Shown here: positions 15,374 to 28,518 of the stretch, in pieces
How the letters are laid out: each line of letters opens with the position of its first letter
Position numbering within the stretch: position 1 is the first letter of the stretch
Assembly: GCF_030345095.1 (NCBI RefSeq)
Contig: NZ_CP128360.1
Span: 4,092,001 to 4,156,000, forward strand
Length of the DNA stretch: 64,000 bases
From: Solwaraspora sp. WMMA2056
Lineage (GTDB): Bacteria > Actinomycetota > Actinomycetes > Mycobacteriales > Micromonosporaceae
Reading direction: 5' to 3'
Position numbers and translations under genes: made by a program
The notes under the pieces: generated by a model
The model's database searches: none
What the model saw: the letters and a program-made list of their open reading frames with translations, nothing else
Told to the model about the DNA's origin: nothing

Positions 15374-16731
15374 GAGGTGAGTGCCTCCTGCCGCTCGGCC
15401 GGCGTCTGAGTGTCCCTGGCGTCGGGCGCCGTCGACGGTGCGTCGTCGGGCAGTGCGCCGAAGTGTTGGAAGGCGATCCGGTGTTCCACCGGGTAGACGT
15501 CGCGGCCGAGCATGTTCGCGATGATCACCGAGTTGCGGTACGGACCCATGCCCAGGTCGGGGGCGGTCAGGCTGTGGGTGTGCTCCTCGGCGTTCTGCAC
15601 GAAGATCTCCCGGTCGCCGTGGTCGACGCTGTAGCCGACGGCCACGTCGAATCGGCCCCGCCCGTCCCACCGGATCCGGTCGCGGACCGGGTCGAGGATG
15701 GCCGGTACGGCCGGCCGGTAGCCGGTGGCCAGAACCAGCCCTTCGGTGTCCAACGTGAAGTGGCGGTCCTGTTCCTGATGGTGCAGGGCGAGTCGGTACC
15801 GGCCGGCGTCGGCGTCCCATTCGGCGCCGGTCAAGGCGGTCCCGGTCAGCAGGATGGTCGGCACCGGACCGGCCACGTCCTTGCGGTACAGGGTGTCGAA
15901 GATGGTGTTCACCAGGTCACCGCTGATGCCCTTGTAGAGGCTGCGCTGGTCCCGGTTCAGCCGGTCGCGGCTGGCCGGCGGCAACGCGTGGAAGTAGCGG
16001 ACGTACTCCGGTGAGGTCATCTCCAGGGTCAGTTTGGTGTACTCCATCGGGAAGAACCGGGGCGAGCGGGTGATCCAGTTCAGTCGGTAGCCGCAGGTGT
16101 CGATCTCCTCCAGCAGGTCGAGGTAGATCTCCGCGGCGCTCTGTCCGCTGCCGACGACGGTGATCGACTCCATCTCCTGCAGCCGGGCCTTGTGTGGCAG
16201 GTAGTCGGCGCTGTGGATGGCCGGGCCGGGCAGGTCGCGCAGCACGGCCGGGCGGTACGGCACGGTGCCGATGCCGAGCACCAGCCGCCGGGTCCGCAGC
16301 GTCTCGACGGTCCCGGTGCCCGATTGCCGTACGCGCACCAGGTAGTCGCCGCTCGCCGCGTCGTGGGTGACCTGTTCGACCCGGTGGCCGAACCGGATGG
16401 CGGGCAGTTGCGCCGCCGCCCACCGGCAGTAGGCGTCGTACTCGGCGCGCAGTGGGTAGAAGTCCTCGCGGATGTAGAACCGGTAGAGCCGGCCGGTCTG
16501 CTTGAGGTAGTTGAGGAACGAGTACGGCGAGGTCGGGTCGGCCATGGTGACCAGGTCGGCCAGGAACGGCACCTGGATACTGACACCGTCGATCATCAAC
16601 CCGGGGTGCCAGGCGAACTCGTCGCGTTGCTCCAGGAAAACCCCGTCGAGGTCGTCGAGCGGTGCGGTCAGGCAGGCCAGCCCGAGGTTGAACGGGCCGA
16701 GACCGATGGCGACGAAGTCATGCGTGCGCAT
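15370..16731 (-). CDS. desB: Lysine/cadaverine N6-hydroxylase, DesB-like
   Basis: FAD- and NADPH-dependent N-monooxygenase, 453 aa, converting cadaverine (or lysine) to the N-hydroxy compound used for hydroxamate formation. The N-terminal FAD motif is 'FVAIGLGPFNLGLACL', the substrate segment is 'FAWHPGLMIDGVSIQVPFL', the NADPH motif is 'VVGSGQSAAEIYLDLL' and the C-terminal signature is 'EGLVLATGYRPAVP'. Length and motif order match IucD/PvdA/DesB. The start ATG 16731 lies inside the 3' end of desA (14-nt overlap). Cadaverine is favoured as substrate because a decarboxylase precedes it (inference). Confidence 0.93.
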   Translation of the reverse strand: MRTHDFVAIGLGPFNLGLACLTAPLDDLDGVFLEQRDEFAWHPGLMIDGVSIQVPFLADLVTMADPTSPYSFLNYLKQTGRLYRFYIREDFYPLRAEYDAYCRWAAAQLPAIRFGHRVEQVTHDAASGDYLVRVRQSGTGTVETLRTRRLVLGIGTVPYRPAVLRDLPGPAIHSADYLPHKARLQEMESITVVGSGQSAAEIYLDLLEEIDTCGYRLNWITRSPRFFPMEYTKLTLEMTSPEYVRYFHALPPASRDRLNRDQRSLYKGISGDLVNTIFDTLYRKDVAGPVPTILLTGTALTGAEWDADAGRYRLALHHQEQDRHFTLDTEGLVLATGYRPAVPAILDPVRDRIRWDGRGRFDVAVGYSVDHGDREIFVQNAEEHTHSLTAPDLGMGPYRNSVIIANMLGRDVYPVEHRIAFQHFGALPDDAPSTAPDARDTQTPAERQEALTS

Positions 16732-18265
16732 TGGCGCCCACCTCCGTGGCGATGGCGGTCGGTGGGGCGGAGAGCAGGGCCGGGTCCCACTCGGCGTCGA
16801 GCAGTTCGGCGCCGGCCCGGCGGATCAGATCGATCACGGTACGGAGATCTTCCACTGTCGTGTTCGGGTTGAGCAGGGTGAACTTGAGCCAGTAGTGGCC
16901 GTCGATGGTGGTGCCGGCGATGATCGCGGCGCCGTCGCCGAACAGCCGGGCCCGCAGCCGGGGCAGCAGCCGGTCACAATCGGCCTCCGGGAGCCAACCC
17001 GGTCGGTAACGGAACAGCACGGTGCTGAGCACCGGTCGCATCGCGACCTCGAAGTCCTCCTGCGCGGTCAGCTCGTCGTACGCGACGGCGGCCAGGTCGA
17101 CGACCCGGTCGAACATCTCGCCGAGCTGCTGGGCACCGATGGTGCGCAGGGTCAGCCACAGCTTCAACGCGTCGAAGCGGCGGGTGGTCTGCAGGCTCTT
17201 GTCGACCTGGTTGGGTACGGTCGCCGTACGCGGATTGAGGTAGTCGGCGTGGACGGCGATCCGCCGCATGGCCGCCGCCTCCCGGACCACGATGGCGCTG
17301 CAGCTGACCGGCTGGAAGAAGCTCTTGTGGAAGTCCACGGTCACCGAGTCGGCGCGTTCGATGCCGTCGAGCAGCGCCCGGCGTCGGCCGGAGACCAGCA
17401 GGCCACAGCCGTACGCGGCGTCGACGTGCAGCCACACGGCGTACTCGCGGCAGACCTGACTGATCGCGGCGAGGGGGTCGACGCAGCCCCGGTCGGTGGT
17501 GCCGGCGGTGGCGACCACCGCCATCGGGATCAACGCCTGGGCGCGGAGCAGGTCGATCGCCGCGCGTAGTGCGCCCGGGTCCATCCGGCCGGTGTCGTCG
17601 GTGGCGACCGGTACGACGGCGTCGGCGGCCAGCCCGAGCAGTCGGGCGGATTTGCCGACGCTGAAGTGGCTCTCCCCGGTGGCCAGGATCCGCAGCCGGG
17701 GCAGCACCGCGTCGCGGCTGATCCCGGCGGCGGCGCCCCGGTCGCCGGGCGGATGCCCGCCGTCGGCGCTGCGGGCCAGCCGGTCTTCGCGGGCCAGCAG
17801 CAGCCCGTGCAGGTTGGACTGGGTGCCGCCGCTGGTGAAGACGCCGTCGGCGGTGGGGCCGAAGCCGATCCGCTGCGCGGTCCAGTCGACCATCCGGCGT
17901 TCGATGAGGGTGCCGCTGGTGCTCTGGTCCCAGGTGTCGACCGAGGAGTTGACGGCGGCGAGCAGCAGTTCGGCGCTGAGCGCGGGGATCGCCACCGGGC
18001 AGTTCAGGTGGGCGAGGTAGGTGGGTTCGTGGAACCAGACCGCGTGGTCGAGGTAGAGCGCGCCGATCTCGTCGAGCACGGCCCCGGTGGTGCCGAGCGG
18101 CGTGTCGAGGTCGACACGGTCGACCATGGCCTGCAACGTCGCGACACCGGCCCCGGAGTACGGCTGGCGGACCGTGCGGACGCGGTCGGCGAGCCGGGCT
18201 GCGGTCTGGTCGATGCTGGACACGTAGGCGTCCACCGTGTGCCGGCCGAAAAGATGTGGGTACAT
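16718..18265 (-). CDS. desA: PLP-dependent lysine decarboxylase, DesA-like
   Basis: Group II (glutamate/aromatic-type) PLP decarboxylase, 515 aa, expected to make cadaverine from lysine as first step of desferrioxamine-type biosynthesis. Visible features: 'FTSGGTQSNLHGLLLA' (phosphate-binding), 'WLHVDAAYGCGLLVSG' (Asp that contacts the PLP ring) and 'SVTVDFHKSFFQPVSC' with the PLP-binding Lys. ATG 18265 has GGAGGGG 3 nt upstream; an in-frame ATG 24 nt earlier overlaps the iron box and lacks a ribosome site. It is the first gene of a five-gene minus-strand operon and is controlled by the adjacent iron box. Confidence 0.92.
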   Translation of the reverse strand: MYPHLFGRHTVDAYVSSIDQTAARLADRVRTVRQPYSGAGVATLQAMVDRVDLDTPLGTTGAVLDEIGALYLDHAVWFHEPTYLAHLNCPVAIPALSAELLLAAVNSSVDTWDQSTSGTLIERRMVDWTAQRIGFGPTADGVFTSGGTQSNLHGLLLAREDRLARSADGGHPPGDRGAAAGISRDAVLPRLRILATGESHFSVGKSARLLGLAADAVVPVATDDTGRMDPGALRAAIDLLRAQALIPMAVVATAGTTDRGCVDPLAAISQVCREYAVWLHVDAAYGCGLLVSGRRRALLDGIERADSVTVDFHKSFFQPVSCSAIVVREAAAMRRIAVHADYLNPRTATVPNQVDKSLQTTRRFDALKLWLTLRTIGAQQLGEMFDRVVDLAAVAYDELTAQEDFEVAMRPVLSTVLFRYRPGWLPEADCDRLLPRLRARLFGDGAAIIAGTTIDGHYWLKFTLLNPNTTVEDLRTVIDLIRRAGAELLDAEWDPALLSAPPTAIATEVGANAHA

Positions 18266-18288
18266 GGACCCCTCCAAGACCGCCTCCA

Positions 18289-18307
18289 TAAGGGTAACCT
18301 AACCTAA
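18289..18307 (-). promoter_or_regulatory. IdeR/DmdR iron box upstream of desA
   Basis: Read on the minus strand: TTAGGTTAGGTTACCCTTA. It matches 16 of 19 positions of the actinobacterial iron-box consensus TTAGGTTAGGCTAACCTAA and sits 23 bp upstream of the desA start. It is expected to bind the Fe2+-loaded DtxR-family repressor and silence the operon in iron sufficiency. Further CTAA/TTAG half-sites (18303-18313) extend toward the MFS gene. Confidence 0.85.
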
Positions 18308-21819: not shown

Positions 21820-23199
21820 TTACCCGGCCACCGCAGCCGGCGGCGGGGTGTCCAGTCGTGGGCCTGGCCGGCCTCGCAGCACCCGCAGCGCGACGCCGGG
21901 TCGCGCCACCGCCGACAGCGGTTCCACCAGGTGGAACACGTCGGTGAGCACCTTCAGCACATACGGATCCCGGTTGGCCACGTCGGCGGCCCGGTCGAGA
22001 TACCACCGCGACAACCGGCCGCCACGTGCCGGCTGGTCGCCGACGGTCGTCGGGTACCGCAGGTCCGCGCCGGTGGCGATCAGCCACGCCGCTTCGCTGC
22101 CGGCCGCCACCTTCACCTGCGCCGCGCGGCCGAGTCGACCCCCGCTGGTACGCAGCTGCTCGGCCAGGGTCACGCCGGCCCGGGCGGCGACGCTCATGCC
22201 CTGGCCGTAGACCGGATTGAACGTGCAGGCGGCATCGCCGACCACCACGAACCCGTCCGGCCAGCGGTCCATGGACTCGTAACGGCGACGGTGGTTGCCG
22301 GTGTTGCGGAAGCCGTGGATGGGCGAGTCGGGGGTGGCGTCCCTGATCGCCTCGTAGAGCACCGGGCTGCGTAGCCCTCGGGCGAACTCCAGGAAGCCGG
22401 CCTCGTCGGTGGGTGGGCAGTCCCCGCCGAGGCCGCCGAGGGTGACCATCCACCGGTCGTTCTCGATCGGATAGATCACCCCGCCCCGCCCGGTGTCCGG
22501 TGGCTGCGGCATCAGCACGATGTTCTTCCAATCGGCGGTCACCTCCGGGGCCAGCACATAGCGACGGCTGGCGTACCCGAGCCCTGACTCGACCTTGACC
22601 TCCTGCGGGCGCCCGTACCCCAGCCGGTCGAGCCACTGCGGGGAGTGTGAGCCGCGCCCGCTGGCGTCGACCACCAGATCGGCGTCGAGCCGCAGTACCT
22701 GCCCGCTGGTGCCACGCTGGCGCACCTCGACGCCGGTGACCGCGTCCCGGTCGGTCGCGCCGAGCAGCCCCACCGCCTCGTGGCCCGGCAGGAACCGCAC
22801 CCTGGGGTCGGCGGCCAGCCGTTCGCGTACCGTCCAGTCGAGCCGTTCCCGGCTGATCCCGATCATCCGGTGGGTGGCCGGGAAGCGTTCCCGCCAACCG
22901 GTCGCGCTCAGATACATGACGTCGGTCGGGGCGGCCACCTCGACCGCGCCGGCCGCCCGTAACTCGTCCAGCAGCCCAGGGAAGAGCCGGTCCAGGGCCC
23001 GCTGCCCGGCGGTGATCAGCACGTGCAGGTGGTGCGCCTGCGGGACACCGGCGCGCACCTTCGGCTCGTCGGGGAACCGGTCCCGGTCGACGACGGTCAC
23101 CCGGTCGACGTGGTCGACCAGCGCGCGGGCGGCGCACAGACCGGCGAGGCTGCCACCGATGACGACGGCATGGCGGGCGGCGACTGTGGATTGTGGCAT
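21820..23199 (-). CDS. FAD-dependent oxidoreductase (PHBH/geranylgeranyl reductase-like)
   Basis: 459-aa group A-type flavoprotein. The N-terminal dinucleotide motif is 'AVVIGGSLAGLCAARAL', followed by 'VVDRDRF'. The second FAD motif is 'GFVVVGDAACTFNPVYGQGM'. A middle 'DLVVDASGRGSHSPQWL' segment is typical of tryptophan-halogenase-like or squalene-epoxidase-like hydroxylases. The start ATG 23199 is supported by the Rossmann motif falling at residue 12. It is probably transcribed with the downstream glycosyltransferase (4-nt gap). Substrate unknown; related proteins occur in natural-product pathways and as stand-alone genes. Confidence 0.8.
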   Translation of the reverse strand: MPQSTVAARHAVVIGGSLAGLCAARALVDHVDRVTVVDRDRFPDEPKVRAGVPQAHHLHVLITAGQRALDRLFPGLLDELRAAGAVEVAAPTDVMYLSATGWRERFPATHRMIGISRERLDWTVRERLAADPRVRFLPGHEAVGLLGATDRDAVTGVEVRQRGTSGQVLRLDADLVVDASGRGSHSPQWLDRLGYGRPQEVKVESGLGYASRRYVLAPEVTADWKNIVLMPQPPDTGRGGVIYPIENDRWMVTLGGLGGDCPPTDEAGFLEFARGLRSPVLYEAIRDATPDSPIHGFRNTGNHRRRYESMDRWPDGFVVVGDAACTFNPVYGQGMSVAARAGVTLAEQLRTSGGRLGRAAQVKVAAGSEAAWLIATGADLRYPTTVGDQPARGGRLSRWYLDRAADVANRDPYVLKVLTDVFHLVEPLSAVARPGVALRVLRGRPGPRLDTPPPAAVAG

Positions 23200-23286: not shown

Positions 23287-24876
23287 TCAGCGGTGCAGCC
23301 GCCGGTACACCGGTGCCAGCCGCCGGTGCAGGTCACAGTAGATGTCGAAGATCTCGTCGTAGCGGCTGCGGTGCGCGGCGTTCGGGGTGAAGACCTGGTC
23401 GACGCGCAGCAGCCCCGGGATGTCGGCGAAGGTGAGCATCCCGGCGCCGACCGCGCCGATCCAGCCGGCACCGCGGGCGTTGACCGCCACCGGGGCCAGA
23501 TCCCGGGCGATCTCGACGCCGAGCACGTCGGCGAAGATCTGGCACCACGCCGCCGACCGGGCGCCACCACCGGTGATCGTCAGGGAGCCGACCGGGGTGC
23601 CGAGGAACCGGTCGACGGCCCCGGACAGCCACCGGGTGTTCAACGCGACCCCCTCGAAAACCGCCCGGAGCAGATCGGAGCGGTTGGTGTCCAACGAGAT
23701 GTTGAGGAACCCGGCGCGCAGGTTCGGGTCGTCGACCGGGGCGCGTTCGCCGTACAGCCACGGCATGTAGAGCACCCCGTTGGCGCCGGCTGGCACGGTC
23801 GGGATGATCGCGTCGAACGCGTCGAAGATGGTCGGCTCGTCGCGGCTGAGGTGGCCGGCGCCGACCAGCGGATCGTCGTACTCGACGATCTTGTCCTTGA
23901 GCCAGGTCAGGTTCGCCCCGGCGGTGGCCTGCAGCGCGGTCATCAGGTAGCGGTCGCCGATCGCGCAGGGCACCGAGGCGATCTGCGCGGCCACGTCGGT
24001 CTTCTTCCGGCGCACGTGCGCGGCGATCCACGACGAGGTGCCCAGGTACAGGTGCGGATCGTTGTCGGCGGTGGTGCCGGCGCCGATCGCCGCCGCGGTG
24101 TTGTCGATCGCCCCGGCCACCACCTGCACGCTCGCCGGCAGATTCAGCTGTGCGGCGGCGGCCGGGGCCAGGGTGCCGATCACCTCGGTGCAGGCCACGA
24201 TCGGCGGCAGCTTGGCGGCGTCGATGCCGCAGTCGGCGACCAGCGCGGGGGAGTAGCGGATCCGGTCCGGCCGCCGGTTGTCGGTCACCCAGGAGGTGAG
24301 GATCGAGTCGACGGTGGCCACGGTGCGGCCGGTCAGCTTGAGGTTGATCCAGTCCAGCGCGTTGAGGAACGTCGCGGTCCGCGCGTACACCTGCGGCATG
24401 GTGTCGCGGACCAGCAGCATGTGCGCGGCCGGGTCCTTGCCGGTGGTCGAAGGCATCCCGCCGGTCAGCCGCAGCCAGCGGACGATCCGCCGCAGCGACA
24501 TCCCCTGGTACGCCGGGAAGCCGCCGAACTGGCGGCGCAGATGTGCCGCGCCGCGCATGTCCAGCCAGGTGATGCACTGCGTCAACGGCTCCCCGGCGGC
24601 GTCCACGGCGATGGTGCCCTCACCCTGGGTGGAGGAGCAGACCGTGGTGACCGCCCGCAGGTGCTCGGGGTGGGCGCGACCGAGCTCGGCGACGACCTCG
24701 ATCAGCGCGGCCCACCACGCCTGCGGATCCTGTTCGGCGCCACCCCCGGGCAGCACCCGCAGCGGCACCGGGCGCTCGGCCCAGCCGGTCACCGTACCGT
24801 CGGCGGCGACCAGCGCGGCCTTCATCCCGGAGGTGCCCAGATCGATCGCCAGCACCTGCGGCGGGACGGCCGGCAT
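23287..24876 (-). CDS. FGGY-family carbohydrate kinase
   Basis: 529-aa sugar kinase of the xylulokinase/glycerol kinase fold. N-terminal phosphate loop 'LAIDLGTSGMKAALV'. The hexokinase-like hallmark blocks are 'TWLDMRGAAHLRRQFGG', 'GAIDNTAAAIGAGTT' and 'LTITGGGARSAAWCQIFAD' (the ATP-binding FGGY signature region). ATG 24876 lies 5 nt after the stop of the aldolase-aminotransferase gene with which it forms an operon. It likely phosphorylates a ketose or polyol that is then cleaved by the aldolase domain (inference). Confidence 0.88.
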   Translation of the reverse strand: MPAVPPQVLAIDLGTSGMKAALVAADGTVTGWAERPVPLRVLPGGGAEQDPQAWWAALIEVVAELGRAHPEHLRAVTTVCSSTQGEGTIAVDAAGEPLTQCITWLDMRGAAHLRRQFGGFPAYQGMSLRRIVRWLRLTGGMPSTTGKDPAAHMLLVRDTMPQVYARTATFLNALDWINLKLTGRTVATVDSILTSWVTDNRRPDRIRYSPALVADCGIDAAKLPPIVACTEVIGTLAPAAAAQLNLPASVQVVAGAIDNTAAAIGAGTTADNDPHLYLGTSSWIAAHVRRKKTDVAAQIASVPCAIGDRYLMTALQATAGANLTWLKDKIVEYDDPLVGAGHLSRDEPTIFDAFDAIIPTVPAGANGVLYMPWLYGERAPVDDPNLRAGFLNISLDTNRSDLLRAVFEGVALNTRWLSGAVDRFLGTPVGSLTITGGGARSAAWCQIFADVLGVEIARDLAPVAVNARGAGWIGAVGAGMLTFADIPGLLRVDQVFTPNAAHRSRYDEIFDIYCDLHRRLAPVYRRLHR

Positions 24877-24881
24877 CCCGC

Positions 24882-27149
24882 TCAGACCCCTTCTACCTGT
24901 GCGAACACCTGGTCGAAACGCTCCAGTGCGGTGTCGATCACCTCGTCGGTGTCGGCCATCGAGGTGTACATCCGGGAGCCGGCCAGGGTGATGATCCCGT
25001 GCGCGGTGTACGCCGCCCCGATCTGCTCCATCAGCCGCTTGCGGGCCTTGTTCTCCTTCAGCAGCTTGATCGGGTTGCGCATGTCCAGCAGCATCACGCC
25101 ACTGCACTCCAGGTGCACGATCGACCCCTGGTTGTACGCCACGTACGGCAGCCCGTACCTGTCGATCAACCGTTGCAGTCCCCGGGTGAGCCGGTCGCCG
25201 GCCCGTCCGGCGATCACCGGGGCGTTCGTCCGGGCCATCTCGGCGATGGCGAAGTAGCCGGCCGCGCAGGACAGCGGATTCGCCGACAGGGTGCCACCGA
25301 CCTGGATGTGCGCGCCGCTGCGCCCGTCGAGTCCGGAGCCGAAGACCGCCATCACGTCGGACCGGCCGCCGACGCCGCCGGCCATCGGGTAACCGCCGGA
25401 GACCGCCTTGCCGAACACGGTCAGATCGGGGGTGACACCGAAGTAGCCGGCCGCGCCGCCCAGGCCGGTCCGGAATCCGGTGACCACCTCGTCGAAGACG
25501 AGCAGCGCGCCGAACTCGTCGCACAGCGCGCGGACCTTGGCGTTGAAGTCGTGCGGCACCGGGCGGGTGCCGGACTCGGGGCCTAGCGGTTCGACGATCA
25601 CCGCCGCCGTGCCGCCGCGTACCCGGTTCTCGATCAGTTTGCGGCGCAGTTGGCCGAGGTCGTGCGGGAACGCCTCGCGGGTGTTGGCGGTGGCGCCGAA
25701 CGGGATGCCCTTGGCGTTCATCCGGTAGGTGCCCGGCACCCGCAGCCCGTACACCATCGTGTCGGACCAGCCGTGGTACGCGCCGCCGACCTTGATCACC
25801 ATGTGCTTGCCGGTGAAGGCGCGGGCACCGCGGACCGCCGCCATCACCGCCTCGGTGCCCGAGCCGAGCGACCGGTACATCTCCACGTGCGGCATGTACC
25901 GGTGGATGATCTCGGCGAGCTTCAGCTCGTACTCGTGGAACAGCCCGGTGACCGGCCCCGACTCCTTCACCACCGCCGCGACCTGTTCGTTGACCGGGCC
26001 GTAGTTGCTGCCCAGGATCGTCGGGCCGCCGGCCTGCAGGAAGTCGATGTAGGTGTTGCCGTCGCGGTCGGTCAGGTAGGCGCCGTCGGCCACGTCGATC
26101 GCCAACGGGAACGGGTAGTTGAAGGCCAGGTTGTGCTGCACTCCGCCAGGGATCCGCTTCTTCGCCCGGTCGGTGATCTCCTTGCTGGCCCGGCAACGGT
26201 CGTTGAAGTAGCCGAGCACATCGAGCATCGCGTCGTGACGCAGCCCGCGCAGCGGTTGGGCGACCAGGGCCTTGAGCCGGCGCATCGTGTCGTCGACGTC
26301 GAGGTACTCGGTGATCGCGTAGCCGAGTCGCGCGGACTCGCTGCCCGGTGTCTCGACGGTGGTCGTGTCGGCGGCCGGCGGGCCGGCCGCGGCGATCTCG
26401 GCCGCGGCCGCGTCGGCGCTGGGTAGCTGCTCCTCGACCGGTACCCGCACCGGCGGCACCGACTCGGTGATCTGCGCGGCGATGCGCTTCTCGTCGCTGC
26501 GCAGCTTGGTGAAGGCGATCTCCCGGATCGCCGTCGGGATGGTGTAGACCTTGCCGGCTTCGCTGGTCAGCGCCAGCAGGTAGGCGATCGAGACCTTCTC
26601 CAGCAGTGCCATGTTGAACACCGCGCGGTCCGGGTCGGTGCCCAGCGCGACGACGCCGTGGTTGGCGATGATGAACGCGTTGTCGCCGGAGGCGACCTTC
26701 TTCTGCACGTTGCGGGCGAGGAAACCGGTGCCGGACGGGGCGTAGTCGACGATCGCCACCTCCCGGCCGAGGAAGCGGACCTGCTCGTCGGTGAGCGCCG
26801 GGATCGGTTTACGCAGGAAGGCCAGGGCCGAGGCGTACGGCTGGTGGGTGTGCACGATCGCGTTGACGTCCGGGCGCTGCCGGTAGATGTTGGCGTGCAT
26901 CCCGGCCTCGATCGACGGCGCGAGGTCGCCGCCGGTGCCGTCGGGCACGTGCGTACCGTCGAAGTCGACCAGGCAGATGTCCTCCACCCGCATCCGGTCG
27001 TAGTCGTAGTTGCTCGGCGTGACCGCGTAGAGCCGGTGGCCGGGCACCCGCACCGACACGTTGCCCTCGGTGGCCTTCAGGTAGCCCCGGTCGAGCATGG
27101 TCCGGCACATGTCGACGACGTGTTGGCGGGAGGTGCGGTGCTGCGTCAC
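24882..27149 (-). CDS. Class II aldolase fused to class III aminotransferase
   Basis: 755-aa bidomain protein. Residues about 1-215 are a class II aldolase/adducin domain: 'YLKATEGNVSVRVPGH', 'TPSNYDYDRM', metal-binding His pair in 'AIVHTHQPYASAL', and 'FIIANHGVVALG'. A 60-residue Ala/Pro-rich linker follows. Residues about 300-755 are a class III (glutamate-1-semialdehyde mutase-like) PLP aminotransferase: 'RSLGSGTEAVMAAVRGARAF', 'LLVFDEVVTGFRTG' and the PLP Lys in 'FGKAVSGGYPMAGG'. GTG 27149 has GGAGG 5 nt upstream; the upstream ATG (27182) lacks a proper site. The two halves may act in sequence: aldol cleavage of a phosphorylated sugar and transamination of an aldehyde. The pathway is unknown. 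Confidence 0.87.
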   Translation of the reverse strand: MTQHRTSRQHVVDMCRTMLDRGYLKATEGNVSVRVPGHRLYAVTPSNYDYDRMRVEDICLVDFDGTHVPDGTGGDLAPSIEAGMHANIYRQRPDVNAIVHTHQPYASALAFLRKPIPALTDEQVRFLGREVAIVDYAPSGTGFLARNVQKKVASGDNAFIIANHGVVALGTDPDRAVFNMALLEKVSIAYLLALTSEAGKVYTIPTAIREIAFTKLRSDEKRIAAQITESVPPVRVPVEEQLPSADAAAAEIAAAGPPAADTTTVETPGSESARLGYAITEYLDVDDTMRRLKALVAQPLRGLRHDAMLDVLGYFNDRCRASKEITDRAKKRIPGGVQHNLAFNYPFPLAIDVADGAYLTDRDGNTYIDFLQAGGPTILGSNYGPVNEQVAAVVKESGPVTGLFHEYELKLAEIIHRYMPHVEMYRSLGSGTEAVMAAVRGARAFTGKHMVIKVGGAYHGWSDTMVYGLRVPGTYRMNAKGIPFGATANTREAFPHDLGQLRRKLIENRVRGGTAAVIVEPLGPESGTRPVPHDFNAKVRALCDEFGALLVFDEVVTGFRTGLGGAAGYFGVTPDLTVFGKAVSGGYPMAGGVGGRSDVMAVFGSGLDGRSGAHIQVGGTLSANPLSCAAGYFAIAEMARTNAPVIAGRAGDRLTRGLQRLIDRYGLPYVAYNQGSIVHLECSGVMLLDMRNPIKLLKENKARKRLMEQIGAAYTAHGIITLAGSRMYTSMADTDEVIDTALERFDQVFAQVEGV

Positions 27150-27241
27150 GGTGGCCTCCGGGTTCGCGGTGTCGTCCTTCATCCTCGCCTGGAACCGGCG
27201 GCGGACCACCGTCGCGCCGGCAGCACGATCGGCCCGGCGTT

Positions 27242-27258
27242 TTGTCACTGTGTGACAA
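27242..27258. promoter_or_regulatory. Operator-like inverted repeat TTGTCAC-N3-GTGACAA
   Basis: Perfect 7-bp inverted repeat with a 3-nt spacer in the 193-nt region between the divergent aldolase-aminotransferase and PucR genes. A second imperfect copy lies at 27317-27333. Likely the binding site of the adjacent PucR-type regulator (inference). Confidence 0.72.
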
Positions 27259-27316: not shown

Positions 27317-27333
27317 TTGTCACCGGATGACAG
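27317..27333. promoter_or_regulatory. Second, imperfect TTGTCAC-N3-ATGACAG operator copy
   Basis: Same architecture as the site at 27242-27258 with one arm changed (ATGACAG). It lies 10 nt upstream of the GTG start of the PucR gene, where binding would block its own expression. The two centres are 75 bp apart, about seven helical turns. Confidence 0.6.
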
Positions 27334-27342
27334 GATGACGGC

Positions 27343-28518
27343 GTGCAGGCAGCGGCAGTCACGGCGACGCCCTGGCGGCGGCTGCCGTCCGAGCTGTCCG
27401 GTGCGCTGTGGGCGCGACTACCGGTGCTGGCCACCACCGTCGCCGCGGCGGTCACCGACCTGACCCCGGGGTTCGCCGGTGCCACTGACGCCAAGTTCCG
27501 CGCCGACGTACGCACTGCCGTCGACGTGGCGCTGAATCACTTCCTCGACCTGATCGGCACCGCCGACCCGGCCCTGCCACCCGGGGTGCGGCAGGTCTTC
27601 GTCGCCCTCGGCGCGGCGGAGGCCCGCGAGCAGCGGGGCCCGGAATCCCTGCTCGCAGCCCTGCGGGTGGCGTCCCGGCTGCTGCTGCGCGAGCTCGGTA
27701 CGGCCCTCGCCGAGGTGCGACCCCTCGACGTGGCGGCGCTGGTCGACGCCGCCGACGCGGTCACCGGGTACGTCGACGAACTGGCGGCGGCCAGCACCGA
27801 AGGGTTCGCCCGGCAGGTCCGCGAACAGTCCGGCGAAGGGGACCGGCTGCGCCGCCGGCTCGCCGACGTTCTGCTCGCCGGAGGTACGGCGCCGCCGGTG
27901 GTGACGGCCGCCGCGCACCGCGCCGGCTGGCCGGACCTCGACATCGTCGTCCCGGTCGTCCTGCCGGCCCGGCACGCCCGCGACGCGCGGTTCCGCTTCG
28001 GTGCCGACGGGATCGTGGTCGAACGCGGTCGGGATGCCGTGGTGCTGCTGCGCGCCGGTACCCGTACCGGGCGCCCGGAGCTGGCCGACACCCTGCGGGG
28101 GCGCGGGGCGGCCGTCGGCCCGGCGCTGCCGTGGCAACAGGTGCCGCAGGCGGTACGACTGGCCGAACTCGCCGCGACGGTCGCCGGCACCGATCCGGTG
28201 GACGTCGTGTTCGTCGAGGACCACCTCACCGCGCTGGCGATCGGCGGTCAGCCGGACGCGTTGACGGTGCTCACCGCCCGCCGGCTGGCACCGTTGGCGG
28301 CCCTGCCGGTCGACCAGCGCGCCGAGCTGCTGCGGACCCTGCACAGCTGGCTGCGGCACTGGGGCGCCCGCCGGGCCGTGGCCGCGGAGCTGTTCGTGCA
28401 TCCGCAGACGGTCAGCTACCGGGTCAAGCGGTTACGGGAGCTGCTCGGCGACGACCTGGACGACCCGGACCGCCGGTTCGAGTGGCTGCTGGTGATGGCG
28501 GCCGGGGAGGTGGGCTGA
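27343..28518 (+). CDS. PucR-family transcriptional regulator
   Basis: 391-aa regulator. The C-terminal helix-turn-helix is of the PucR/CdaR HTH_30 type: 'AVAAELFVHPQTVSYRVKRL' then 'RELLGDDLDDPDRRFEWLL'. A GGDEF-like/CdaR central region precedes it and an N-terminal Ala/Leu-rich helical domain is visible. GTG 27343 follows AGGA about 8 nt upstream. Divergent from the aldolase-aminotransferase/FGGY kinase operon, which it probably controls. Paired operator-like repeats lie between them. Confidence 0.83.
   Translation: MQAAAVTATPWRRLPSELSGALWARLPVLATTVAAAVTDLTPGFAGATDAKFRADVRTAVDVALNHFLDLIGTADPALPPGVRQVFVALGAAEAREQRGPESLLAALRVASRLLLRELGTALAEVRPLDVAALVDAADAVTGYVDELAAASTEGFARQVREQSGEGDRLRRRLADVLLAGGTAPPVVTAAAHRAGWPDLDIVVPVVLPARHARDARFRFGADGIVVERGRDAVVLLRAGTRTGRPELADTLRGRGAAVGPALPWQQVPQAVRLAELAATVAGTDPVDVVFVEDHLTALAIGGQPDALTVLTARRLAPLAALPVDQRAELLRTLHSWLRHWGARRAVAAELFVHPQTVSYRVKRLRELLGDDLDDPDRRFEWLLVMAAGEVG

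What the first reader, a model, noticed from the sequence alone, without database searches (positions are those of the whole stretch)
24882..27149. Aldolase-aminotransferase fusion in a sugar kinase operon
A class II aldolase joined to a GSA-aminotransferase-like domain, next to an FGGY kinase and a PucR regulator, is a combination I do not recognise from any named pathway. Reaction logic: phosphorylate a sugar or polyol, cleave it, and transaminate the aldehyde product, giving an amino alcohol or amino acid.
Basis: partly seen in the sequence, partly recalled or inferred. Interest (0 to 1): 0.7.

Follow-up and report, generated by a model that had tools for sequence, protein, structure and literature searches.

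The report
Possible two-step sphingolipid-base lyase operon
A fused aldolase-aminotransferase enzyme sits beside a kinase whose relatives elsewhere partner sphingosine-1-phosphate lyase, so this operon may be an undescribed bacterial way of breaking down sphingolipid backbones, most likely the plant and fungal base phytosphingosine.

Summary
The fusion is real: one 766-aa ORF (27182..24882, minus strand) with an Aldolase_II and an Aminotran_3 domain, followed by an FGGY kinase and facing a PucR-type regulator. It is conserved (54 loci, 76-89% identical; kinase adjacent in 51, PucR homologue in 53), so it is a dedicated system. The lead came from the kinase. Related kinases (33-48% identical) adjoin sphingosine-1-phosphate lyase (S1PL) orthologues in 16 of 24 loci. 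In a kinase-side scan of 386 genomes, the 13 other genomes with the kinase all hold an S1PL orthologue; this genome holds none and has the fusion. In a kinase tree, five fusion-linked kinases nest inside the S1PL-linked clade although their fusions are 80-83% identical to this one: partners were swapped. I infer kinase -> aminotransferase -> aldolase: a 2-amino-1,3,4-triol (best candidate phytosphingosine) is phosphorylated at O1, deaminated to a ketose-1-phosphate-like lipid, and split to DHAP and a long-chain aldehyde. Nothing was assayed; substrate and order are inferred. My searches of open-licence papers listed no description.

The parts
24882..27182 (-). fused class II aldolase / class III aminotransferase, 766 aa
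   Evidence: 54 related loci
26589..27125 (-). Aldolase_II domain (residues 20-198); residues equivalent to FucA E73, H92, H94, H155 kept
24909..26114 (-). Aminotran_3 domain (residues 357-758), PLP lysine K592; the Arg of HemL's SPVRAF motif is absent
23287..24876 (-). FGGY-family kinase, 529 aa, starts 5 bases after the fusion's stop; proposed sphingoid-base/amino-polyol 1-kinase
27343..28518 (+). divergent PucR-type regulator; divergent homologue upstream of the fusion in 53 of 54 related loci
27242..27258 (.). palindrome TTGTCACTGTGTGACAA, candidate operator
   Evidence: motif
27318..27332 (.). second palindrome TGTCACCGGATGACA, candidate operator
   Evidence: motif

Best explanation
The operon is a catabolic pathway for a phosphorylatable 2-amino-1,3,4-triol, most likely the sphingoid base phytosphingosine from plant or fungal sphingolipids. 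(1) The FGGY kinase phosphorylates O1. (2) The aminotransferase domain removes the C2 amino group to a keto acid, leaving a 1-phospho-2-oxo-3,4-dihydroxy chain, which is a ketose-1-phosphate with an alkyl tail. (3) The class II aldolase domain cleaves C3-C4, giving DHAP and a long-chain aldehyde (pentadecanal from phytosphingosine). The fusion is thus a two-step, non-homologous stand-in for S1P lyase, yielding DHAP and amino nitrogen instead of phosphoethanolamine, and its two domains catalyse consecutive steps. Shown here: anatomy, conservation, active-site residues, kinship of the kinase with S1PL-linked kinases, partner swap. Inferred: substrate, reaction order, products, regulation by PucR.
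For: S1PL orthologues (E<=1e-100 to the L114 lyase, which itself hits B. pseudomallei S1PL 5k1r at E 1.6e-163) have a P0003-like kinase in the flank held in 11 of 19 loci of one scan and 5 of 5 in fusion genomes (one of these is the discovery locus and three are close relatives); none of the 17 distinct weaker S1PL-like loci fetched has one. From the kinase side: 14 of 386 genomes have it at E<=1e-85 (my threshold); the 13 besides the own genome are all among the 19 with S1PL (hypergeometric 7e-19, not corrected for ancestry); 11 of 14 kinase loci have S1PL in the flank held. Own genome: no S1PL even at 1e-50. Tree: fusion-linked, S1PL-linked and Burkholderia kinases group together (100/99); five fusion-linked kinases nest in the S1PL part (95/96), while their fusions are 80-83% identical to the window's and their kinases 41-43%. 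Related MFS transporters lie in fusion clusters and beside two S1PL pairs (up to 61%, L152/L046). Unfused kinase-aldolase-AT sets occur in Burkholderia and Butyrivibrio, the former with an ALDH3-type ALDH. FucA residues kept; HemL's SPVRAF Arg missing. The need for a C4 hydroxyl follows from the known chemistry of DHAP aldolases (recalled).
Against: No activity is shown. The window's kinase is in the sister clade of the S1PL-linked kinases, not inside it. 8 of 19 S1PL loci had no kinase in the 1.5-kb flanks held (L121 has one a gene away; L136 is cut short). The own genome has no neutral ceramidase (PF04734); the family is over cut-off in 5 of 33 fusion genomes tested (32 distinct), strongly in only one (G933), with three of the five from one genus, and in 0 of 20 fusion-free genomes of the own family, so its link to the fusion is confounded by lineage. 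No ALDH like the Burkholderia or Butyrivibrio one is found in the 54 fusion loci. Five fusion genomes also keep an S1PL-kinase pair, so replacement is not strict. Loci L047, L056 and L070 lack an adjacent kinase. The Butyrivibrio kinase is distant (29%). The structure prediction failed (pLDDT 36), so pockets could not be examined. A more distant aminotransferase group (about 43%) lies in other contexts, including a RuBisCO-like protein.
Confidence: 0.44

Rival explanations
1. Same enzymes and order, but the substrate is a polar 2-aminopolyol (for example a 2-amino-2-deoxy-hexitol): kinase to the 1-phosphate, aminotransferase to a ketose-1-phosphate, aldolase to DHAP plus a short hydroxyaldehyde.
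For: Chemically identical logic; FGGY kinases and FucA-type aldolases normally handle polar sugars; no neutral ceramidase in the own genome; the L076 MFS transporter's best model is a galactonate transporter, though far under cut-off (81 of 395 bits).
Against: Kinase kinship with S1PL partners; ALDH3-type (fatty or aromatic) aldehyde dehydrogenase with the Burkholderia set.
Confidence: 0.17
2. Aminotransferase first: the free amine is deaminated, then the kinase phosphorylates the resulting ketone, then the aldolase cleaves. The kinase substrate is a ketose-like compound.
For: FGGY kinases classically take ketoses (recalled); DHAP aldolase last fits.
Against: S1PL needs the amino group, so kinases that pair with S1PL should deliver the phosphorylated amine; the swapped kinases suggest the fusion takes the same compound. 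The fused domains would not be consecutive.
Confidence: 0.14
3. One reading: kinase phosphorylates a sugar or polyol, aldolase cleaves it, aminotransferase aminates the aldehyde product.
For: Domain order aldolase-aminotransferase; channelling of a reactive aldehyde would explain the fusion; aldolase domain scores best against ribulose-1-phosphate aldolase (124.5 bits, cut-off 300).
Against: Kinase is outside the sugar-kinase references and under the XylB cut-off (247 of 380 bits); does not explain S1PL in the fusion's place.
Confidence: 0.11
4. Biosynthetic direction: aldolase joins DHAP and an aldehyde, aminotransferase aminates the ketose phosphate, making an aminopolyol phosphate or a sphingoid-like base.
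For: Aldolases and transaminases are reversible; an FAD-dependent reductase-like gene lies downstream (21820-23199).
Against: The kinase then has no clear role; in the S1PL pairs the kinase partner is a degradative lyase; the downstream FAD gene was not among the recurrent neighbours.
Confidence: 0.06

Closest known systems
Sphingosine-1-phosphate lyase pathway (bacterial S1PL, e.g. PDB 3mad and 5k1r)
   Same: An FGGY kinase of the same wider clade lies beside S1PL as beside the fusion; same proposed input, a 2-amino-3-hydroxy-alkyl-1-phosphate; aldehyde product
   Different: Unrelated protein: FucA-type aldolase plus class III aminotransferase instead of a Pyridoxal_deC-family lyase; would give DHAP and keep N as an amino acid, not phosphoethanolamine; needs a C4 hydroxyl
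Ketose-1-phosphate operons (E. coli fucKA, rhaBAD)
   Same: FGGY kinase plus zinc-dependent class II aldolase releasing DHAP
   Different: No aminotransferase; isomerase present; kinases outside this clade
Glutamate-1-semialdehyde aminomutase (HemL)
   Same: Closest solved structures for the aminotransferase domain (4e77, 5i92)
   Different: Less than half of the HemL equivalog cut-off (245 of 527 bits); the SPVRAF Arg (carboxylate-binding, recalled) is gone
Fumonisin aminopentol transaminase FumI (6hbs/6hbv)
   Same: Class III aminotransferase acting on a sphingoid-like amine (recalled)
   Different: Weaker match than HemL-like enzymes (78.7 bits against 209.3); no kinase or aldolase partner known to me

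Membership tests
Aldolase_II / FucA-type DHAP aldolase | Pfam domain over cut-off | tested here: met
   171.9 bits, cut-off 22.2
Aldolase_II / FucA-type DHAP aldolase | zinc ligands and catalytic Glu (E. coli FucA H92, H94, H155, E73; roles recalled) | tested here: met
   H111, H113, H175, E92
Aldolase_II / FucA-type DHAP aldolase | retro-aldol activity releasing DHAP | not testable with these tools
   needs assay
Class III aminotransferase | Pfam domain and PLP lysine | tested here: met
   171.2 bits; K592 aligned with the HemL lysine
Glutamate-1-semialdehyde aminomutase | NCBIfam HemL equivalog cut-off and the SPVRAF Arg | tested here: not met
   245.2 of 527.3 bits; Arg missing in 7 of 7 family members aligned with E. 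coli HemL
Xylulokinase | NCBIfam XylB equivalog cut-off; clade with E. coli XylB | tested here: not met
   247 of 380.25 bits; separate clade
S1PL-linked FGGY kinase clade | grouping with S1PL-adjacent kinases apart from the E. coli references | tested here: met
   100/99 for fusion-, S1PL- and Burkholderia-linked rows (drawn with a midpoint root); window kinase in the sister subclade
S1PL-linked FGGY kinase clade | sphingoid-base kinase activity | not testable with these tools
   no member assayed to my knowledge
Sphingosine-1-phosphate lyase | S1PL sequence (Pyridoxal_deC family) | tested here: not met
   fusion has no such domain; own genome has no S1PL hit at 1e-50

The most novel reading that the evidence does not exclude
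An undescribed bacterial sphingoid-base degradation route in which an FGGY-family kinase, not a eukaryote-type sphingosine kinase, makes the 1-phosphate, and a fused aminotransferase-aldolase replaces S1P lyase, turning phytosphingosine-1-phosphate into DHAP, an amino acid and a fatty aldehyde. The same kinase clade would be the missing kinase of bacterial S1P-lyase operons.
Probability: 0.4. Interest if true: 0.82.

Novelty: new variant of a known kind. Interest (0 to 1): 0.68.

Why it matters
Bacterial S1P lyases have been crystallised and assayed, but I know of no assigned kinase that feeds them (recalled). The adjacency found here names a candidate, an FGGY clade whose best curated matches are sugar-kinase models below their cut-offs. 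If the fusion replaces the lyase, there is a second chemistry for sphingoid-base breakdown, suited to the 4-hydroxylated bases of plants and fungi, feeding glycolysis directly. It is testable with two purified proteins.

Tried and rejected
Sugar or pentose pathway: dropped after the kinase tree. Glycolaldehyde/ethanolamine idea (aminotransferase makes an aldehyde, aldolase joins it to DHAP): no support found. Sphinganine, sphingosine and arylserinols (p-nitrophenylserinol) as substrates for the whole route: my first version (notes); given up because retro-aldol of a 2-oxo-1-phosphate needs a C4 hydroxyl (chemistry, not a call). Strict mutual exclusion of fusion and S1PL: not true, 5 of 33 fusion genomes tested (32 distinct, as G818 and G925 are one) hold a strong S1PL match and 21 more hold a weaker S1PL-like one. 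Ceramidase co-occurrence: inconclusive. Unfused version in L076/G398: not established, both fragments end at contig ends. Wider operon in Micromonosporaceae: nothing beyond PucR, fusion and kinase recurs in more than 11 loci by my clusters. Structure of the fusion: a 19-sequence alignment gave pLDDT 36, so no fold search was made. Literature: 10 searches listed nothing whose title or abstract start describes this fusion, an FGGY sphingoid kinase or this route; only open-licence PMC papers are held, and only the top rows of the longer lists were seen. PMC5234717 was read as passages only; all other papers only as listings with abstract starts.

Full report
OBSERVATION. The reported stretch is one open frame on the minus strand. 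With the ATG at 27182 the protein has 766 residues: Aldolase_II at 20-198, Aminotran_3 at 357-758. The kinase starts at 24876, five bases past the fusion's stop codon, and reads 529 aa with both FGGY domains. The divergent gene at 27343 ends in a PucR-type HTH_30 domain. The window lies in a 7.01-Mb single-contig genome with one copy of the fusion. The best-known curated NCBIfam matches are below their cut-offs: HemL 245 of 527 bits, XylB 247 of 380, ribulose-1-phosphate aldolase 124.5 of 300. None of these names applies.

CONSERVATION. A scan of species genomes returned 54 loci, mostly Micromonospora and Actinoplanes, also Nocardioides, Aeromicrobium, Actinotalea and Kineosporia. In 52 of the 54 the match is one open frame of 734-781 codons; L061 has one stop and L076 is cut by a contig end. 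A kinase homologue directly follows in 51 of 54; L047, L056 and L070, three relatives, have another gene there. A divergent PucR homologue lies upstream in 53 of 54, within about 0.2 kb except in L065 (2.3 kb); the exception is L076, whose upstream side is not on the contig. In my gene clusters the next most frequent neighbour occurs in 11 loci. In samples the fusion is patchy: 7 of 200 genomes of the order, 1 of 394 of the class, the own genome, and 1 of 396 of the phylum, the own genome, with 12 more that match only the aminotransferase half. The palindrome TGTCA-N5-TGACA occurs twice in the window's intergenic gap and in 7 of 54 upstream regions (the window and six loci; L076 left out), against 0.13% of single-base shuffles; it is a candidate operator only.

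UNFUSED FORM. Two plasmids outside Actinomycetota carry separate genes close together: Burkholderia ambifaria (kinase 48%, aldolase 39%, aminotransferase 66% identical to the window) and Butyrivibrio fibrisolvens (29%, 32%, 57%). In Burkholderia an SDR and an ALDH follow in the same direction, and an Mpo1-like gene is nearby. In Butyrivibrio an ALDH lies about 5 kb further on, beyond an IS66 element. The Burkholderia ALDH matches ALDH3-type enzymes including fatty aldehyde dehydrogenase 4qgk (E 3e-94). The Butyrivibrio ALDH is 33% identical to it; both score best against the benzaldehyde dehydrogenase model MdlD, below its cut-off. The Nocardioides cluster (L046) holds an extended SDR 56% identical to one about 5 kb from the Burkholderia kinase, beyond an IS5 transposase gene. 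Separate genes in one cluster in some lineages and one protein in others indicate a shared process.

THE KINASE LEAD. In the Nocardioides genome a second kinase, 39-41% identical to the window's, lies a few bases downstream of a PLP lyase gene. That lyase is an S1P lyase by sequence: E 1.6e-163 to B. pseudomallei S1PL 5k1r and 4e-126 to the S1PL 3mad (its source, Symbiobacterium, is recalled). PMC5234717 (passages) reports that the recombinant B. pseudomallei enzyme is catalytically active; the words kinase and operon do not occur in its main text. I scanned 386 genomes of the phylum with this S1PL. Of the 30 loci fetched, 19 are at E<=1e-100 (L118-L136); 11 of these have a P0003-like kinase (33-48%) in the 1.5-kb flanks held, 8 do not; the other 11 loci have none. 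In the 33 fusion genomes searched, 5 have S1PL at E<=1e-100 (L170-L174), all 5 with the kinase adjacent; 7 weaker S1PL-like loci fetched (6 distinct) have none. In all: 16 of 24 strong, 0 of 17 distinct weak. L170 is the discovery locus and L172-L174 are close relatives, so not all are independent.

THE TEST FROM THE OTHER SIDE. A scan of 386 genomes with the window kinase at E<=1e-85 found it in 14, the own genome and 13 others. All 13 others are among the 19 genomes with an S1PL orthologue at E<=1e-100 (hypergeometric 7e-19, not corrected for shared ancestry). Of the 14 non-own kinase loci, S1PL is in the flank held in 11 (in L197 with one gene between) and not in L196, L199 and L203. The own genome has no S1PL at E<=1e-50 and carries the fusion.

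THE TREE. A 54-row kinase tree (one planned row, L163, gave no hit and was dropped; 18 fusion-linked rows were chosen, 16 from the 54 loci, plus the window and L117) places fusion-linked (18), S1PL-linked (12), two plasmid and three Kineosporia-type rows together, 97/93, or 100/99 without Butyrivibrio, apart from six E. coli FGGY kinases and four others of the own genome. The three Kineosporia-type kinases proved to lie beside S1PL. Fusion-linked kinases fall in two places. Micromonosporaceae, L076 and Burkholderia form one clade (100/98). Nocardioides, Aeromicrobium, Actinotalea and one MAG form another, nested among S1PL-linked kinases, beside those of L150 and L151 (95/96). The fusions of the second group are 80-83% identical to the window's while their kinases are 41-43%, so the kinase was exchanged for one from an S1PL-type pair. 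Exchange is expected if fusion and lyase consume the same kind of kinase product. Two related MFS subfamilies (34% to each other) are shared too: in or beside the clusters of L040, L041 (beyond PucR), L046, L052, L054, L073 and L076, and beside the S1PL pairs of L152 (55-61%) and L153 (34%).

MECHANISM (inferred). S1PL requires a phosphorylated 2-amino-3-hydroxy compound, so its kinase partner should phosphorylate an amino-diol. If the fusion takes the same product, the aminotransferase domain would turn C2 into a ketone and yield a ketose-1-phosphate, the substrate type of a FucA-like aldolase. The aldolase domain keeps the FucA residues, and the aminotransferase lacks the HemL SPVRAF arginine in all seven members aligned. 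DHAP aldolases cleave C3-C4 and need a hydroxyl on C4 (established chemistry, recalled), which sphingosine and sphinganine lack and phytosphingosine has. Hence phytosphingosine, a main base of plants and fungi (recalled). The hosts fit loosely: actinomycetes that are mostly soil dwellers (recalled), a rhizosphere Burkholderia and a rumen Butyrivibrio.

WHAT SPEAKS AGAINST IT. No assay exists. The window's own kinase is sister to, not inside, the S1PL-linked clade. The own genome lacks neutral ceramidase; in the 53 genomes tested it is over cut-off in 5 of 33 with the fusion and 0 of 20 without, but only G933 is a strong match and three of the five are one genus. Five fusion genomes keep an S1PL pair as well. 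No ALDH of the Burkholderia or Butyrivibrio kind is in the 54 fusion loci. A 43%-identical aminotransferase group lies next to a kinase and a RuBisCO-like protein resembling the methionine-salvage enolase in three loci (L078, L080, L083; the L080 protein was searched) and in other settings elsewhere. The structure model was useless (pLDDT 36).

VERDICT. The association of this kinase clade with S1PL, and the fusion standing in its place, are solid comparative results. Phytosphingosine and the step order are the best reading, at about 0.44. No description was seen in ten searches of open-licence papers.

Noticed in passing
L078 9038-13788, L080 8364-12906, L083 and L115: FGGY kinase followed by a RuBisCO-like protein (the L080 one is closest to the methionine-salvage enolase, 2zvi and 2oek), with a 43% relative of the aminotransferase divergently adjacent in L078, L080 and L083; a possible further variant of the pathway.
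   Followed up: partly
L022 10438-11085: A 'hypothetical protein' after the Burkholderia aminotransferase is a degenerate copy of the class II aldolase (25% to the fusion) without the metal ligands.
   Followed up: partly
L137-L147 and L175-L181: A second, weaker S1P-lyase-like PLP subfamily (36-42% to L114) is found in many fusion-bearing Micromonosporaceae; none of the 17 distinct loci fetched has the kinase next to it, and its function is unknown to me.
   Followed up: partly
L150 8970-17669: An S1PL-kinase pair with ORFs nearby that look by eye like a glutamine-synthetase-type ligase, alcohol dehydrogenase, peptidase C26 and ALDH, perhaps for the ethanolamine part.
   Followed up: no
L022 13503-13754: Mpo1-like (2-hydroxy fatty acid dioxygenase family, PF06127) gene close to the Burkholderia cluster; Mpo1 acts in yeast phytosphingosine breakdown (recalled).
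   Followed up: no
L197 and L199: Two P0003-like kinase loci carry, just upstream, an ORF that looks by eye like a saccharopine-dehydrogenase-type protein; in L197 it lies between S1PL and the kinase.
   Followed up: no
21820-23199 (-): FAD-dependent oxidoreductase, weakly geranylgeranyl-reductase-like, 87 bases after the kinase on the same strand; not among recurrent neighbours of the fusion.
   Followed up: partly
16718-18289 (-): PLP decarboxylase (Pyridoxal_deC, E 1e-61), with no sign of a link to the operon.
   Followed up: no
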